DNA of 64,000 nt from positions 62,001-126,000 of the forward strand of contig PHCB01000004.1 in the NCBI GenBank assembly GCA_002842095.1. The letters run 5' to 3'. Position 1 is the stretch's first letter, and every line of letters begins with the position of its first letter. The stretch is from a candidate division BRC1 bacterium HGW-BRC1-1. Its GTDB lineage: Bacteria; Sumerlaeota; Sumerlaeia; Sumerlaeales; Sumerlaeaceae. Positions 58,049 to 64,000 of the stretch are shown here, piece after piece. The notes under the pieces were generated by a model. That model saw nothing but the letters and a program-made list of their open reading frames with translations. It was not told where the DNA came from and did not search any database. The translations under genes were made by a program, and so were the position numbers.

Positions 58049-58645
58049 ATGAACAATCCCGACGACCTCGTCGCGATAGGTATTATCACGCGCACCCATG
58101 GAAACGCCGGAGCGGTGCGCATGTCTCCCCTGTTCGAACCCATCGAACGTTTCGAGCAACTTCCATCCGATGAAATCATCCTCCGTCTGCCACGCCGGTT
58201 GGCGCTGGATTTGGGGATGCAGCCCGCCAGTGTTCCTCCTCCGGAGGGACGCGCTGACTTGATCCATGCGACGGCACACGTTGAGGATTATTTTTTCCAT
58301 CAACAGCACGTCATACTCACCCTCGCAGAAATCCCCGACATGACCAACGCAGAAAAATTGCGGGCCATAGAAGTACTCCTGACGCCGGCCGACCTCTGGC
58401 CTCTGGAACCAGGTGAGTTTTATCACTGGCAATGGATCGGGTGCGCCGTGCTGGACGACAGCACAGGCGAGAAGATCGGTGAAGTGCTGAAGATCGACGC
58501 CGGTTCTGCACACGATTTCCTCCGCGTACAGCCGGCCGAGGGCAAAGCGTTTCTGGTGCCGATGGTAAAACAAATGGTCGTGAGCACCGACATGAACGCC
58601 CGCACGGTACGGGTGGCCATCCCTCCCGGTCTCACCGATCTGTAA
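58049..58645 (+). CDS. rimM: Ribosome maturation factor RimM
   Basis: The 198-residue protein has the N-terminal RimM beta-barrel (IGIITRTHGNAGAVRMSPL). After an unusually long middle segment (about residues 45-100) come the PRC-barrel parts WQWIGCAVLDDSTGEKIGEV and the closing FLVPMVKQMVVSTDMNARTV. RimM assists 30S head assembly through S19. The gene lies 43 nt after khpA. trmD and rplS, which normally complete this operon, do not follow. Confidence 0.95.
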   Translation: MNNPDDLVAIGIITRTHGNAGAVRMSPLFEPIERFEQLPSDEIILRLPRRLALDLGMQPASVPPPEGRADLIHATAHVEDYFFHQQHVILTLAEIPDMTNAEKLRAIEVLLTPADLWPLEPGEFYHWQWIGCAVLDDSTGEKIGEVLKIDAGSAHDFLRVQPAEGKAFLVPMVKQMVVSTDMNARTVRVAIPPGLTDL

Positions 58646-58731
58646 CAACGCGGCGGTGGTCCCATCGAATGATGGGGGGTGCGGACCGTAGATCATTGAG
58701 ACAAGAATCTAATCAGAGACCTCATTAACCC

Positions 58732-59490
58732 ATGAAACCACTCGATCTGGAATCAACCAATCCACAACTCGCGTCGCGCTCGCCCGAGCAGATTTTGCAA
58801 TGGGCTGTCGACACTTTCGGTGAGCGCCTCGCGGTGCAAAGCTCCATGCAGAAATCCGCCGGGATGATCATGCACTTGATCAGTCGCATTGCTCCGGACA
58901 CAGAAATCGTTTTTATCGACACCGGCGTCCACTTCCCCGAGACTCTTGCCGTGCGCGATGAGTTCATCCAGCGGTTCGGCGTGAACATCCGAACCTACGC
59001 CCCCAGCCTCTCCTTCGAGGAGCAACGGTTGGAGTTCGGTCGCGACCTTTACAAGTTCGATGGCGAGGTGGACGGGCCCGGTTATCAGAAGTGCTGCGAA
59101 CTCCGTAAAGAGATGCCTTATCTTGCAGCTGTAAAAGGGCGCTTCGATGCCGTCGTGGGCGGCCTGATGCGTGGCGAAGGCGGTGCCCGCGGCGACGTGA
59201 AAACCATTTCACCAGACCCGCGCATTGACGCATACAAGATCTACCCCCTCGCCTTTATCACCGAGGAAGAAGTGGATGCGTATAACGCGGAACACAATCT
59301 CCCGGCGCATCCGCTATACGCCCGCGGCTTCACCAGCATCGGTTGCAGCACCTGCACAACCCCCGTGGCTCCCGGCGAGTCACGTCGCGCAGGCCGTTGG
59401 CGGCACATCCGTGAAGCCAACCCCGAACTGGCCGGGCGAGATCTGTATTGTGGGATCAACTTTGACGACAAGAATCAGACCGATAAGTAG
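58732..59490 (+). CDS. cysH: CysH-family adenylyl-sulfate / PAPS reductase
   Basis: This 252-residue PP-loop enzyme reduces activated sulfate to sulfite in assimilation. AVQSSMQKSAGMIMHLI matches the SSF...S PP-loop, followed by VFIDTGVHFPETL. Cys121-Cys122 (KCCELRK) and Cys205/Cys208 (GCSTC) are the four ligands of a [4Fe-4S] cluster, pointing to the APS-reductase type rather than the cluster-free PAPS reductase. The usual C-terminal catalytic ECGLH motif reads YCGIN here (Cys240). The usual substrate-loop RRDQS...TRA is also changed (MRGEGGARGD). The exact substrate is therefore uncertain. No other sulfur genes are nearby. Confidence 0.88.
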   Translation: MKPLDLESTNPQLASRSPEQILQWAVDTFGERLAVQSSMQKSAGMIMHLISRIAPDTEIVFIDTGVHFPETLAVRDEFIQRFGVNIRTYAPSLSFEEQRLEFGRDLYKFDGEVDGPGYQKCCELRKEMPYLAAVKGRFDAVVGGLMRGEGGARGDVKTISPDPRIDAYKIYPLAFITEEEVDAYNAEHNLPAHPLYARGFTSIGCSTCTTPVAPGESRRAGRWRHIREANPELAGRDLYCGINFDDKNQTDK

Positions 59491-59523: not shown

Positions 59524-59925
59524 TTAGAAAGGCTTGGCCTTAAGTTCCGCCAGACTACCCATCTCGCGCACCACCACCACGCGAAAGCGGATGTGGCGTC
59601 GGGCCAGACGCAGTGCTTCCTGAACCGTGCGCCCCCCCACTTCCACGCGCAAGCTGTTGGTGCCAGTAATAGTCCAATTGCCGGGCACACCCATTACCTT
59701 GACGAACCTCACCACACCCTTGCGCCCCAAGCCCTCGGCGCGAAAGTAACGAAACGGCTCGGTGGGTGGCGTTGGAGGAGCACTGACAGCTGGTTTCCCG
59801 GAAGCACGGGGTGACGCTGCCTGCGGTTGCCTGCGCTCCCGCTCACGACTATTTTCGCGCGAAGATGAATCGTTGGTTCGAGATTCCCTTGATGGTCGCG
59901 ATTTGATGTTCTTGTCTTCAGTCAT
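59524..59925 (-). CDS. Small protein with disordered N-terminus, function unknown
   Basis: I do not recognise this 133-residue protein. Residues about 1-55 are Ser/Arg/Glu-rich and likely disordered. Residues about 57-133 form a compact domain with regular alpha/beta pattern (FRYFRAEGLGRKGVVRFVKV, then WTITGTNSLRVEVGG, a helix TVQEALRLARRH and strand FRVVVVREMG). No signal peptide is seen. It is convergent with cysH and divergent from namZ, with about 60 nt to the namZ start. The compositional contrast and ordered C-terminus make it a plausible real gene. Confidence 0.6.
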   Translation of the reverse strand: MTEDKNIKSRPSRESRTNDSSSRENSRERERRQPQAASPRASGKPAVSAPPTPPTEPFRYFRAEGLGRKGVVRFVKVMGVPGNWTITGTNSLRVEVGGRTVQEALRLARRHIRFRVVVVREMGSLAELKAKPF

Positions 59926-59974
59926 GTCCCATGTGCACAGCGGAGCAGGATCGCACTTCTGTTACCAAACATTC

Positions 59975-59980
59975 GGAGGA
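59975..59980 (+). promoter_or_regulatory. Ribosome binding site deciding the namZ GTG start
   Basis: GGAGGA lies 6 nt before a GTG at 59987. It supports this codon over several upstream in-frame starts that would place extra residues before the lipoprotein signal. Confidence 0.7.
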
Positions 59981-59986
59981 TATCAG

Positions 59987-61642
59987 GTGAACTACAAGAT
60001 AATCGCAACAGCTTTTGCCGCACTCTGGCTCATCACGGGCTGCGGGCAGACCGAGAAAAAATCTGAGATGGTCGCAGAGACGCCCGAACCCATGGCTACG
60101 GCGTCGGTCGAAGTCACCACGGCGACCGAGAGCTTCGCTCCCCCTGCAACCGCCCCCGCTGCACTCGAGTCCACCGCCCCCATGGCAACACCCGGCGCAG
60201 TAAACATGATGGCACCATCCACGGCGGAAACAACCAATCCCATGGCGCGGCTTGAGGCTCCTTACGAAGCAAACCGCTCTGTGTACACCCAGATCAAAGT
60301 GGAAGTAATCCCCGACAAAAAAGGACCCGCGCAGAAAACCACCGCAACCAGTGCAAAGGAACCTTTGATCAAAGTCGATTCCCACCCCATGGGCGACGGC
60401 CCGGTGCTGACGGGACTTGACGTTATGAAACGGGAACAGTTTTCCAGCCTTAAGGGCAAAACGGTTGCGCTTCTGACCAATCACTCGGCCATCGACCGCG
60501 ACGGCAACCACGTTCTGGACCTCATGATGAATCAGCCCAACGTGAACATCGTGAAGCTCTTCTCCCCCGAGCACGGGCTTTATGGCAACGTGGACACGAA
60601 AACCCCCGACGTAAAGGACCCCGCCACGGGCCTGATGGTGCACAGCCTTTACAGCACGAAGCCCGATAACCCCAAGAAGCCCCACCACCCCCGTGCAGCA
60701 ACTCTCGAGGGTGTGGACGCGGTGATCGTGGACCTGCAGGATATCGGTGCCCGTTACTACACCTACTGCTCCTACATGGGCTACATGATGGAAGTCTGCG
60801 CCAAACTGGGCATCGAAGTGATCGTGCTGGATCGCCCGAATCCCGTGGGTGGCGTGTATGTGGACGGCCCCATCATGGACGAGGACCTGGAAGGCATGGT
60901 GACGGGCTACTTCCGGATGCCCATCGCCCATGGCATGACAATGGGTGAATTGGCGCGCATGTTCAACACGGAGAAAAAGATCGACTGCAAGTTGACGGTA
61001 GTCCCCTGCGAGGGGTGGAAACGCGACATGTTCTTCGATGAAACCGGCCTGCGCTGGGTGAACCCGTCGCCGAACATTCAGGACCTCGACGCAGCGCTGG
61101 TTTATACGGGCATCGCGATTCCGGAAAGCATCGTCAGCATGGGCCGCGGCACCGATGAACCCTTCCACATCTTTGGGGCTCCCTATTTCGAGGATTCGCA
61201 AAAGCTGGTGGACGAATTGACCACGGGCGGACTGCCGGGCATTCGTCTTGAAGCGGCTGATTTCACCCCGACCGGCACCCTCAGCCGCGACCACGTGGGC
61301 GAGGGGCGCGTATGCCACGGCGCGCGCATGCACATCACCGACCGCAAAACCATGCGGCCTGTGCTGTTGGGTGTGCGGCTCATGGATTATCTCCAGCGCC
61401 ACCATGGCACCGAGATGATCGATGAGATGAAATGGAATGCTGCCGCGAAGAAATCTCTCCCCACTGGAAAAAAGGTTCCCCGCATCGACCTGATGAAGCT
61501 ACGGGGCGCTTCCAGCGCCATCCTTTGCGCCCGCATTCGCGAGGGCAAATCTCTGGATGACACGATGAAATTCATCGACGAGCAGGTCGCTGGCTTCATG
61601 CCCATGCGGGCGAAGTATCTGCTGTATCCATCAGAGAAATAA
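59987..61642 (+). CDS. namZ: NamZ-type exo-beta-N-acetylmuramidase lipoprotein (DUF1343)
   Basis: From the GTG at 59987 the product is 551 residues with signal peptide and lipobox ITGC, so it is predicted to be a lipoprotein. A low-complexity Ala/Thr/Pro/Met-rich linker (about 22-130) leads to the DUF1343 domain: TGLDVMKREQFSSLKGKTVALLTNHSA, VKLFSPEHGLYG, VDLQDIGARYYTY, VLDRPNPVGG and the later WVNPSPNIQDLDAALVYTG. NamZ proteins release N-acetylmuramic acid from the non-reducing end of peptidoglycan fragments. A role in wall turnover or recycling is thus likely. The stop directly abuts the ATG of the PolX-like gene. Confidence 0.92.
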   Translation: MNYKIIATAFAALWLITGCGQTEKKSEMVAETPEPMATASVEVTTATESFAPPATAPAALESTAPMATPGAVNMMAPSTAETTNPMARLEAPYEANRSVYTQIKVEVIPDKKGPAQKTTATSAKEPLIKVDSHPMGDGPVLTGLDVMKREQFSSLKGKTVALLTNHSAIDRDGNHVLDLMMNQPNVNIVKLFSPEHGLYGNVDTKTPDVKDPATGLMVHSLYSTKPDNPKKPHHPRAATLEGVDAVIVDLQDIGARYYTYCSYMGYMMEVCAKLGIEVIVLDRPNPVGGVYVDGPIMDEDLEGMVTGYFRMPIAHGMTMGELARMFNTEKKIDCKLTVVPCEGWKRDMFFDETGLRWVNPSPNIQDLDAALVYTGIAIPESIVSMGRGTDEPFHIFGAPYFEDSQKLVDELTTGGLPGIRLEAADFTPTGTLSRDHVGEGRVCHGARMHITDRKTMRPVLLGVRLMDYLQRHHGTEMIDEMKWNAAAKKSLPTGKKVPRIDLMKLRGASSAILCARIREGKSLDDTMKFIDEQVAGFMPMRAKYLLYPSEK

Positions 61643-63421
61643 ATGAGACGTTTCAATAAGCAGCAAATCATCGAACAACTGGGGCTGTTCTCCGCGCTGT
61701 TGGAATTTCACGGGGCGAACAAGTTCAAGGTCCGCGCCTTTGACAACGCCGCAGCGGCCCTGGGGTCTGACCCGGCTTCGATGGAAGAATTAACCGCAGA
61801 ATCCCGCCGCCTGGAGGAGCTCGAAGGTATCGGCCCCTCCACGGCGGCTCTGATTCGTGAACTGTACGAGACCGGGAAATCTCACGATATCGAGAAGATG
61901 CTGGAGGCAGCGCCCCGGGACATTGAGGTTCTGATGACGGTGCCCCAGTTGGGACCGAAAAAAATCCGGGTGCTCTATGACGCCCTTGGCATTGAGAGCA
62001 TCGCAGACTTGGAAGTGGCTCTGTCCGATGGCAGAGTGGCAGAGGTGCCGGGCTTCGGGGGGAAAACCGTTGAGAAAATACTGAACGCTCTCGAGCTCTT
62101 CCGCGAATCCCTGGGACTGCACCTGCTCAGCACCGCCGAAGAGACCGTTGCGCCTGTTATGCTCGCTCTGCGCGATATGGGGGAAGTTATCCGGGTAGAA
62201 GTGGCGGGCAGCCTGCGGCGCAAGTGCGAGACTATCGGCGACGTGGATCTGGTGGCCAGCTCCGGTAATCCCGCCCAAGTCATTTCGAATTTCACAGAGT
62301 TGCCTCACGTTCTCGAGGTTGTCGAACTTGGCAGGACCCAAGCCACCGTTTTTCTGAACGGTGCGGTGAAGGCCACATTAAGAGTGGTCGGTGACGACGA
62401 ATTTGCTCCGGCATTGTTTTGGCATACGGGCAATGGCGAGCACGTGGCCGAGTTTATCTCGCGCGCTGGAGAAAAAAATCTGCGTGTGGAAGAATGCGGC
62501 ATATTTCGAACGGGGCCAGCTGGTTCCGATGACAACAGGCTGGTTATCAAAACAGAGCAGGAAATCTATGCGCTGCTCGAGATGGACACCATCGAGCCGG
62601 AATTGCGCGAAGGACGCGGAGAGCTTAATGCCGCCGCGGCCCACGCGTTGCCGACGCTGGTAACCCGGGAAGATTATCGCGGCGTACTCCACGTCCACAG
62701 CACCTGGAGCGATGGGCAAAAATCCATACGCGAGATGGCTCGCGCCGCTCTTCAGGAACAAAACTGCAGTTATCTCGGCATTTGCGATCACAGCGAGGTT
62801 GCGGTTTATGCGGGGGGTGTTAAACGTGAAGACATTGCCCGGCAGCACAAAGAGATCGACGCAATAAACGAGGAAATGCATGGCGATGCGTTTCGAGTCT
62901 TGAAGGGTTGTGAATGCGATATTCTTGCGGATGGGTCACTGGATTATTCTGACGAGATCCTTTCACGCATGGATTTCGTGGTAGCGTCCGTTCACAGCCG
63001 TTTCAACATGTCCGCCGAGGAGATGACCGAGCGCCTGCTTGCTGCTGTAGAGAACCCCTATACGACGATTCTGGGGCATCTGACAGGACGCCTGCTTCTT
63101 TCAAGATCACCTTATGCTTTTGATATGAATGCTGTTCTGCAACGTTGCGCTGACACAGGTACCATCGTCGAGATCAATGCCGATCCCCACCGTCTCGATC
63201 TGGACTGGTCGCACATCCACGCCGCTGCTGAGATGGGCGTGCGCTTCGCGGTAAACCCCGACGCTCACAGCACTGAGGGGCTGGACAATATCCACTACGG
63301 TATTTCCATCGCACGCAAAGGTTGGCTCGCCGCTGACCAGGTGATCAACACCCTGTCAGCAGAGGAGTTTCTTAAACTGGCGGCCGAAATACGTGCGGAA
63401 AAGATGAAGTCTAAGAAGTAA
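61643..63421 (+). CDS. polX: PolX-family protein with PHP domain, third catalytic Asp replaced
   Basis: The 592-residue protein has the bacterial PolX layout. Helix-hairpin-helix motifs (EELEGIGPSTAALI and VPGFGGKTVEKIL) are followed by the polymerase palm with GSLRR at 189-193 and Asp200/Asp202 in IGDVDLV. The PHP nuclease domain starts about residue 345. Where PolX enzymes have VDLRVV with the third catalytic Asp, this protein has KATLRVV, with Thr245 (codon at 62375-62377) in the Asp position. All PHP metal ligands appear kept: His350/His352, Asp382/His383, Glu424, His451, His479, Asp540/His542. It may therefore act as a nuclease rather than a polymerase. It starts on the base after the namZ stop. 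Confidence 0.92.
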   Translation: MRRFNKQQIIEQLGLFSALLEFHGANKFKVRAFDNAAAALGSDPASMEELTAESRRLEELEGIGPSTAALIRELYETGKSHDIEKMLEAAPRDIEVLMTVPQLGPKKIRVLYDALGIESIADLEVALSDGRVAEVPGFGGKTVEKILNALELFRESLGLHLLSTAEETVAPVMLALRDMGEVIRVEVAGSLRRKCETIGDVDLVASSGNPAQVISNFTELPHVLEVVELGRTQATVFLNGAVKATLRVVGDDEFAPALFWHTGNGEHVAEFISRAGEKNLRVEECGIFRTGPAGSDDNRLVIKTEQEIYALLEMDTIEPELREGRGELNAAAAHALPTLVTREDYRGVLHVHSTWSDGQKSIREMARAALQEQNCSYLGICDHSEVAVYAGGVKREDIARQHKEIDAINEEMHGDAFRVLKGCECDILADGSLDYSDEILSRMDFVVASVHSRFNMSAEEMTERLLAAVENPYTTILGHLTGRLLLSRSPYAFDMNAVLQRCADTGTIVEINADPHRLDLDWSHIHAAAEMGVRFAVNPDAHSTEGLDNIHYGISIARKGWLAADQVINTLSAEEFLKLAAEIRAEKMKSKK

Positions 63422-63598: not shown

Positions 63599-64000
63599 TC
63601 AGGGCTTGATGATGTTACAAGTCAGGAAAATCAGTAGTGACGACTTCTCCATCGTGTCGCTCGTGCGGTTGAAGAGCAATTTGCCGATGTATGGCAACTT
63701 GCGGAGGATCGGCACACCGCTCTCGCTCTCACGGGAACGTTCACCAGTCCAACCACCGAGAACGATGGTTCCACCATCACTGCAGCGAGCAACAGTGTTC
63801 AACGAACGACGACGGGTTTCGAAGACCAATGAGCGTGCGATAGCGGTCGGTTCGAAATTGTCGCTGGCGTTGTTACCATTGATATCCACGGTAGCAATTC
63901 CGCCACCCTCATTGCCGTAATCCTGCAATTCGAGGTCCTGAATATCGAGCCGGATTTCGCCCGTCTGTGTAATCTGGGGCGATACCGACAGCGACACCTG
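63599..64000 (-). CDS. Secretin (type II/IV/III secretion outer-membrane channel), 3' end only
   Basis: The minus-strand frame is open to the right edge, so only the last 133 residues are visible. They contain the secretin core signatures: LSVSPQITQTGEIRLDIQDLEL, then GGTIVLGGWTGERSRESESGVPILRKLPYIGKLLF (about residues 74-108), and the C-terminal SSLLIFLTCNIIKP. Secretins form the outer-membrane ring for type IV pili or type II secretion. With pilC and pilT in the same window this is probably PilQ or GspD, but the distinguishing N-terminal domains are outside the window. Confidence 0.92.
   Translation of the reverse strand, partial: QVSLSVSPQITQTGEIRLDIQDLELQDYGNEGGGIATVDINGNNASDNFEPTAIARSLVFETRRRSLNTVARCSDGGTIVLGGWTGERSRESESGVPILRKLPYIGKLLFNRTSDTMEKSSLLIFLTCNIIKP

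What the first reader, a model, noticed from the sequence alone, without database searches (positions are those of the whole stretch)
61643..63421. PolX-family protein that may have lost polymerase activity but kept its PHP nuclease
The palm domain keeps GSLRR and Asp200/Asp202, but the position of the third metal-binding Asp (VDLRVV in PolX enzymes) reads KATLRVV, with Thr245. All recognisable PHP metal ligands are retained. This predicts a phosphodiesterase/exonuclease with a DNA-binding palm rather than a repair polymerase. The gene directly abuts namZ, an odd partner.
Basis: partly seen in the sequence, partly recalled or inferred. Interest (0 to 1): 0.6.

Follow-up and report, generated by a model that had tools for sequence, protein, structure and literature searches.

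The report
DNA repair polymerase turned nuclease
This gene encodes a bacterial family-X DNA polymerase whose polymerase site has decayed while its nuclease site is intact, so it probably trims DNA ends instead of filling gaps; such enzymes are already known, and this one looks like a separate, recent case within a lineage whose other members still look like working polymerases.

Summary
The 592-aa ORF (61643-63421) is a full-length bacterial PolX with 8 kDa, thumb, palm, fingers and PHP domains. Thr245 sits exactly at the third catalytic Asp (Thermus PolX Asp243); Asp200 and Asp202 are kept. GDDEF is no substitute, because canonical relatives carry acids in those columns as well as the real Asp. 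The dNTP pocket is also degraded: Tyr/His260 to Trp, Phe261 to His, Ser264 to Asn, Lys265 to Gly, Asn268 to Val, Arg272 to Ile, Tyr285 to Cys. All nine PHP metal ligands and six residues of the PHP DNA path are kept. All 29 readable PolX homologues from the same phylum, five of them in the same family, are fully canonical, so the loss occurred on this one lineage. Its polymerase region evolved about four times faster than its PHP domain, the highest ratio of 49 sequences. This is a 'noncanonical PolX' (Prostova et al. 2022: polymerase-dead 3'-5' exonucleases), arisen independently, still without the usual deletions, in a genome where no Ku or LigD-polymerase was found. It is a new member of a known kind. 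Activity is inferred, not measured.

The parts
61643..63421 (+). noncanonical PolX (polymerase site lost, PHP nuclease kept), 592 aa
61643..61882 (+). 8 kDa domain (aa about 1-80), HHH_8
   Evidence: Pfam HHH_8, aa 6-79
61883..62137 (+). thumb (aa about 81-165), helix-hairpin-helix
   Evidence: Pfam HHH_5, aa 95-150
62138..62410 (+). palm (aa about 166-256); GSLRR and D200/D202 kept, third Asp replaced by T245 (codon ACA at 62375-62377)
62411..62632 (+). fingers (aa about 257-330) with degraded dNTP pocket: W260 H261 N264 G265 V268 I272 C285
62675..63376 (+). PHP nuclease domain (aa about 345-578): ligands HHHEHHEDH complete; DNA-path residues F454 R483 R488 N512 R517 K559 kept
   Evidence: residue roles from PMC6616362
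59762..61642 (+). namZ (exo-beta-N-acetylmuramidase), immediate upstream neighbour; the listed GTG start is probably too far upstream. Context only
   Evidence: Pfam NamZ_N and NamZ_C; neighbour also in L048 and L049

Best explanation
The gene is a vertically inherited bacterial PolX that lost its DNA polymerase chemistry on its own lineage and now most likely works only through its C-terminal PHP domain, as a Mn2+-dependent 3'-5' exonuclease, AP endonuclease and 3'-end cleaner in DNA repair. SHOWN by sequence: the third metal-binding Asp is Thr; the steric gate, the cis Gly-Ser, the dNTP-contacting Lys and Asn and further conserved residues are replaced; every PHP metal ligand and the PHP DNA path are kept; all close relatives are canonical; the polymerase region evolved unusually fast. 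INFERRED: the two catalytic metals cannot be held properly, so no nucleotide transfer occurs; the 8 kDa, thumb and palm parts serve at most to hold gapped or nicked DNA for the PHP site; another polymerase fills gaps. It probably acts outside non-homologous end joining, since neither Ku nor a LigD polymerase domain was found in the genome.
For: Third Asp = Thr by pairwise and multiple alignment. The window is the only altered site among 51 loci plus Tth. Of columns at least 93% conserved in the others, the window breaks 8 of 34 in palm+fingers and 0 of 49 in PHP (Fisher p = 0.0005). Terminal branch 1.03 for the polymerase region and 0.26 for PHP: ratio 3.99, the highest of 49; the two nearest sisters are 0.85 and 0.92. 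The window sits inside its own family clade (support 0.999), apart from Deinococcus and rhizobial noncanonical PolX. Intact fold: AlphaFold mean pLDDT 92.9, best PDB match Thermus PolX 3au6, Z 46.9, rmsd 2.4 over 560 residues. Precedent: Deinococcus noncanonical PolX enzymes and B. subtilis PolX D203A have no polymerase activity but keep Mn-dependent exonuclease (PMC9226535). No Ku and no LigD-Pol found in the genome; Nfo found.
Against: No assay was possible. Two of three Asp, GSLRR and the full palm length are kept, so weak activity with Mn2+ cannot be excluded from sequence. Only one genome carries the change, with no second strain or species of the genus to show that it is fixed. The genome is about 95% complete, so absence of Ku or LigD, or of a second PolX, is not certain.
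Confidence: 0.88

Rival explanations
1. It is still a DNA polymerase: Thr245 with another acid (for example Asp251 or Asp252 of GDDEF), or one metal alone, supports slow gap filling.
For: Asp200, Asp202, GSLRR and Arg247 are kept and the palm has no deletion.
Against: Asp251 and Asp252/Glu253 columns hold acids in many canonical relatives that also have the true Asp (L002 has SDDQF plus ADLRVV), so they are not the catalytic site. In the model Thr245 lies in strand 242-249 and residues 251-262 form the next helix. Steric gate, Gly-Ser, Lys and Asn of the dNTP pocket are lost too, which a working polymerase would be expected to keep.
Confidence: 0.07
2. The gene is on its way to loss: a decaying pseudogene, with polymerase decay as the first sign.
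For: PolX was not found in some genomes of the phylum, such as G012 (94% complete), and only a doubtful PHP fragment in G003 (92% complete).
Against: Open frame of 592 aa without stops, PHP branch of ordinary length (0.26) with 0 of 49 conserved positions broken: purifying selection still acts on the nuclease half.
Confidence: 0.04
3. The unusual palm is a sequencing or assembly error.
For: Single draft genome.
Against: Nine changed conserved positions spread over residues 233-285 with the frame intact on both sides; Asp to Thr needs at least two base changes.
Confidence: 0.01

Closest known systems
Noncanonical prokaryotic PolX (Prostova et al. 2022, NAR 50:6398, PMC9226535), e.g. Deinococcus radiodurans and D. 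gobiensis PolX
   Same: Altered Asp triad; Asn279-equivalent replaced by a hydrophobic residue; GS changed to GN; basic dNTP residue lost; steric gate lost; PHP HHHEHHEDH intact.
   Different: Only one triad residue changed (DDT); palm and fingers of full length; arises inside a canonical family, not with the Deinococcus/rhizobial altered PolX; no NHEJ genes found.
Canonical bacterial PolX (Bacillus subtilis, Thermus thermophilus)
   Same: Domain order, fold (3au6 Z 46.9, 36% identity) and PHP active site.
   Different: Third catalytic Asp and dNTP pocket lost.
PolX-like proteins without a polymerase region (PMC12926913), and YcdX-type stand-alone PHP proteins
   Same: PHP nuclease as the likely only active centre.
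   Different: Those lack the polymerase region altogether; here it is present but degraded.

Membership tests
Bacterial PolX (family X with PHP) | 8 kDa, thumb, palm, fingers and C-terminal PHP in one protein of about 570-590 aa | tested here: met
   NF006375 465.7 bits over cut-off 426; Pfam domains; model matches 3au6 over 560 residues, rmsd 2.4
Canonical (polymerase-competent) PolX | three acidic residues of the catalytic triad | tested here: not met
   D200, D202, T245
Canonical (polymerase-competent) PolX | dNTP pocket: steric gate Y/H-F, Gly-Ser, Lys/Arg, Asn | tested here: not met
   W260-H261, G263-N264, G265, V268
Noncanonical PolX (Prostova 2022) | at least one triad acid replaced by a non-acidic residue | tested here: met
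   T245
Noncanonical PolX (Prostova 2022) | substituted dNTP-binding residues | tested here: met
Noncanonical PolX (Prostova 2022) | complete PHP motif HHHEHHEDH | tested here: met
Noncanonical PolX (Prostova 2022) | deletions in palm and fingers (common in the class, not required) | tested here: not met
   100 residues between 186 and 285, same as Tth
Noncanonical PolX (Prostova 2022) | no polymerase activity, Mn-dependent 3'-5' exonuclease | not testable with these tools
   needs purified protein
Noncanonical PolX, main phylogenetic cluster | groups with Deinococcus/Bacteroidetes/rhizobial altered PolX | tested here: not met
   nests in its own family of canonical PolX, support 0.999; no Bacteroidetes sequence was included

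The most novel reading that the evidence does not exclude
An independent, recent loss of PolX polymerase activity, caught before the usual deletions, in a phylum almost without Ku: polymerase loss in PolX would then not depend on a LigD polymerase taking over, and the main role of bacterial PolX would be nuclease-based end cleaning outside NHEJ.
Probability: 0.45. Interest if true: 0.45.

Novelty: new member of a known kind. Interest (0 to 1): 0.3.

Why it matters
It adds an independent origin of polymerase-dead PolX, with five same-family genomes whose PolX is still canonical. Such a pair allows a direct test of which residues must change, and whether the nuclease improves, when a repair polymerase becomes a nuclease. 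It also warns that automatic annotation ('DNA polymerase/3'-5' exonuclease PolX', over the NCBIfam cut-off) calls a probably dead polymerase a polymerase.

Tried and rejected
GDDEF as the source of the third acid: rejected by column comparison. Horizontal origin from the noncanonical PolX of Deinococcus or rhizobia: rejected by tree and synteny. Functional link with namZ: the neighbour is present in two sister genera (L048, L049) and not found beside polX in the other three genomes (L050-L052), whereas cysH is kept near polX in all five and rimM in the four stretches long enough to show it. NHEJ partnership: no Ku in the own genome, Ku in 1 of 40 genomes of the phylum; no LigD-Pol in the family. 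IQ-TREE with bootstraps timed out; FastTree was used. Model coordinates are not exposed, so distances in the metal site could not be measured; the structural point rests on secondary structure and alignment. A first alignment used the wrong strand for some loci and was discarded. Promoter and terminator scan gave nothing above chance.

Full report
What was checked. The ORF at 61643-63421 (+) is 592 aa, begins with an ATG directly after the namZ stop codon, and is a full-length bacterial PolX. It is the only PolX found in a genome estimated 94.8% complete.

The catalytic triad. phmmer against the PDB aligns the protein with Thermus thermophilus PolX over residues 4-578. Tth 'VDLRVV' faces window 'ATLRVV', so Thr245 takes the place of Asp243; Asp200 and Asp202 face Asp198 and Asp200. 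The multiple alignment gives the same columns. The column of D251 is D in 14 and E in 5 of the other aligned sequences, and the next columns are also often acidic, although all of these except Dra have the true third Asp. L002, from the same family, reads 'ADLRVVSDDQF'. In the AlphaFold model (mean pLDDT 92.9) Thr245 is in strand 242-249 and D251/D252 are at the start of the following helix.

Decay beyond the triad. Using the residue mapping of Prostova et al. (PMC9226535), the pocket 'Y-F-T-G-S-K-x-H-N' of relatives reads 'W-H-T-G-N-G-E-H-V'. The steric gate (Tth Y258, Pol beta Y271), the cis Gly-Ser serine (Pol beta 274-GS-275), the dNTP lysine (Tth K263, Pol beta D276) and the base-contacting Asn (Pol beta N279) are replaced. 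By offset, R272I and Y285C correspond to Pol beta R283 and Y296 (inferred from numbering, not from a direct alignment). GSLRR, including the R183 equivalent R193, is kept. Prostova et al. report exactly these trends for noncanonical enzymes: Asn to hydrophobic, GS to GN, basic residue and steric gate not conserved.

The nuclease half. All nine metal ligands are present: H350, H352, H383, E424, H451, H479, E510, D540, H542. The residues which Rodriguez et al. 2019 (PMC6616362) showed to be needed for nuclease but not polymerase activity in B. subtilis PolX (F440, R469, R474, N498, R503, K545) map by offset to F454, R483, R488, N512, R517, K559, all kept.

Is it the phylum's habit? No. All 29 readable homologues from the same phylum (5 in the same family), plus 10 Verrucomicrobia, one Acidobacteria and 11 other bacterial sequences, carry D-D-D and the canonical pocket. 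For the phylum genomes a whole-protein search was used, so selection on the palm does not bias that set. The 11 named genome-contig loci used here (10 Verrucomicrobia, one Acidobacteria) were found through short peptides of the query and are a less fair sample.

Rate evidence. On a fixed tree, the window's terminal branch is 1.03 for palm+fingers and 0.26 for PHP, ratio 3.99, the highest of 49 sequences; its nearest sisters L002 and L003 have 0.92 and 0.85. Among columns conserved in at least 93% of the other sequences the window breaks 8 of 34 in palm+fingers and 0 of 49 in PHP (Fisher p = 0.0005). The conserved columns are not fully independent, so p is indicative. This pattern means relaxed constraint on polymerization with continued constraint on the nuclease.

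Origin. The window groups inside its own family with support 0.999, far from the Deinococcus and rhizobial noncanonical proteins, although support for its exact sister within the family is low (0.37). Gene order agrees. cysH lies close to polX in all five family genomes examined. rimM precedes cysH in the four whose stretch extends far enough (in L048 the contig ends there). A secretin gene follows on the other strand in three (L048, L049, L050). namZ sits directly before polX in two (L048, L049). The namZ contact is therefore inherited local order and not a functional clue. The taxon is probably Sumerlaeota; this is an inference of mine from a family relative held as one contig of 3.29 Mb, reminiscent of 'Ca. 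Sumerlaea chitinivorans', and was not tested.

How it most likely works. By precedent, B. subtilis PolX with one triad Asp changed to Ala lost polymerase activity entirely and kept the exonuclease, and natural Deinococcus enzymes with altered triads behave the same. The window protein should therefore be a Mn2+-dependent 3'-5' exonuclease / AP endonuclease / 3'-phosphodiesterase on gapped or broken DNA. The role in the cell is inferred: Nfo was found, and Xth, Ku and the LigD polymerase domain were not, so end joining of the Ku/LigD kind is unlikely to be its pathway. Ku was found in only 1 of 40 genomes of the phylum.

Comparison with the known. The class is published, in two studies (Prostova 2022: 27.5% of prokaryotic PolX have altered triads; PMC12926913, 2026: polymerase site conserved in 75% and PHP in 95% of PolX1). 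Prostova et al. already state that losses happened several times. What this case adds is one more independent loss, at a stage without palm or fingers deletions, with canonical relatives in five genomes of the same family.

Verdict. Observation confirmed; interpretation supported; new member of a known kind; moderate-to-low interest.

Noticed in passing
59762-61642 (+): The namZ ORF as listed starts at GTG 59762, but a lipoprotein-like signal (VNYKIIATAFAALWLITGCG) lies inside it, so the real start is probably near residue 77. The residues before it are then not coding, or belong to the opposite-strand ORF 59524-59925.
   Followed up: no
59524-59925 (-): A 133-aa ORF with a basic, probably disordered start, overlapping the 5' end of the listed namZ ORF on the other strand; no Pfam match.
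   Followed up: partly
63599-64000 (-): C-terminal part of a secretin (Pfam Secretin), running off the window end; conserved downstream of polX in three family genomes.
   Followed up: partly
58049-59490 (+): rimM (58049-58645) and a PAPS reductase gene (cysH-like, 58732-59490) upstream. cysH stays near polX in all five family genomes examined, and rimM in the four whose stretch extends far enough.
   Followed up: yes
L043 (G003): One family member (G003, 92% complete) has no PolX found, only a weak PHP-like fragment with stops, so PolX may be lost outright in this family. Nfo was also not found there.
   Followed up: partly
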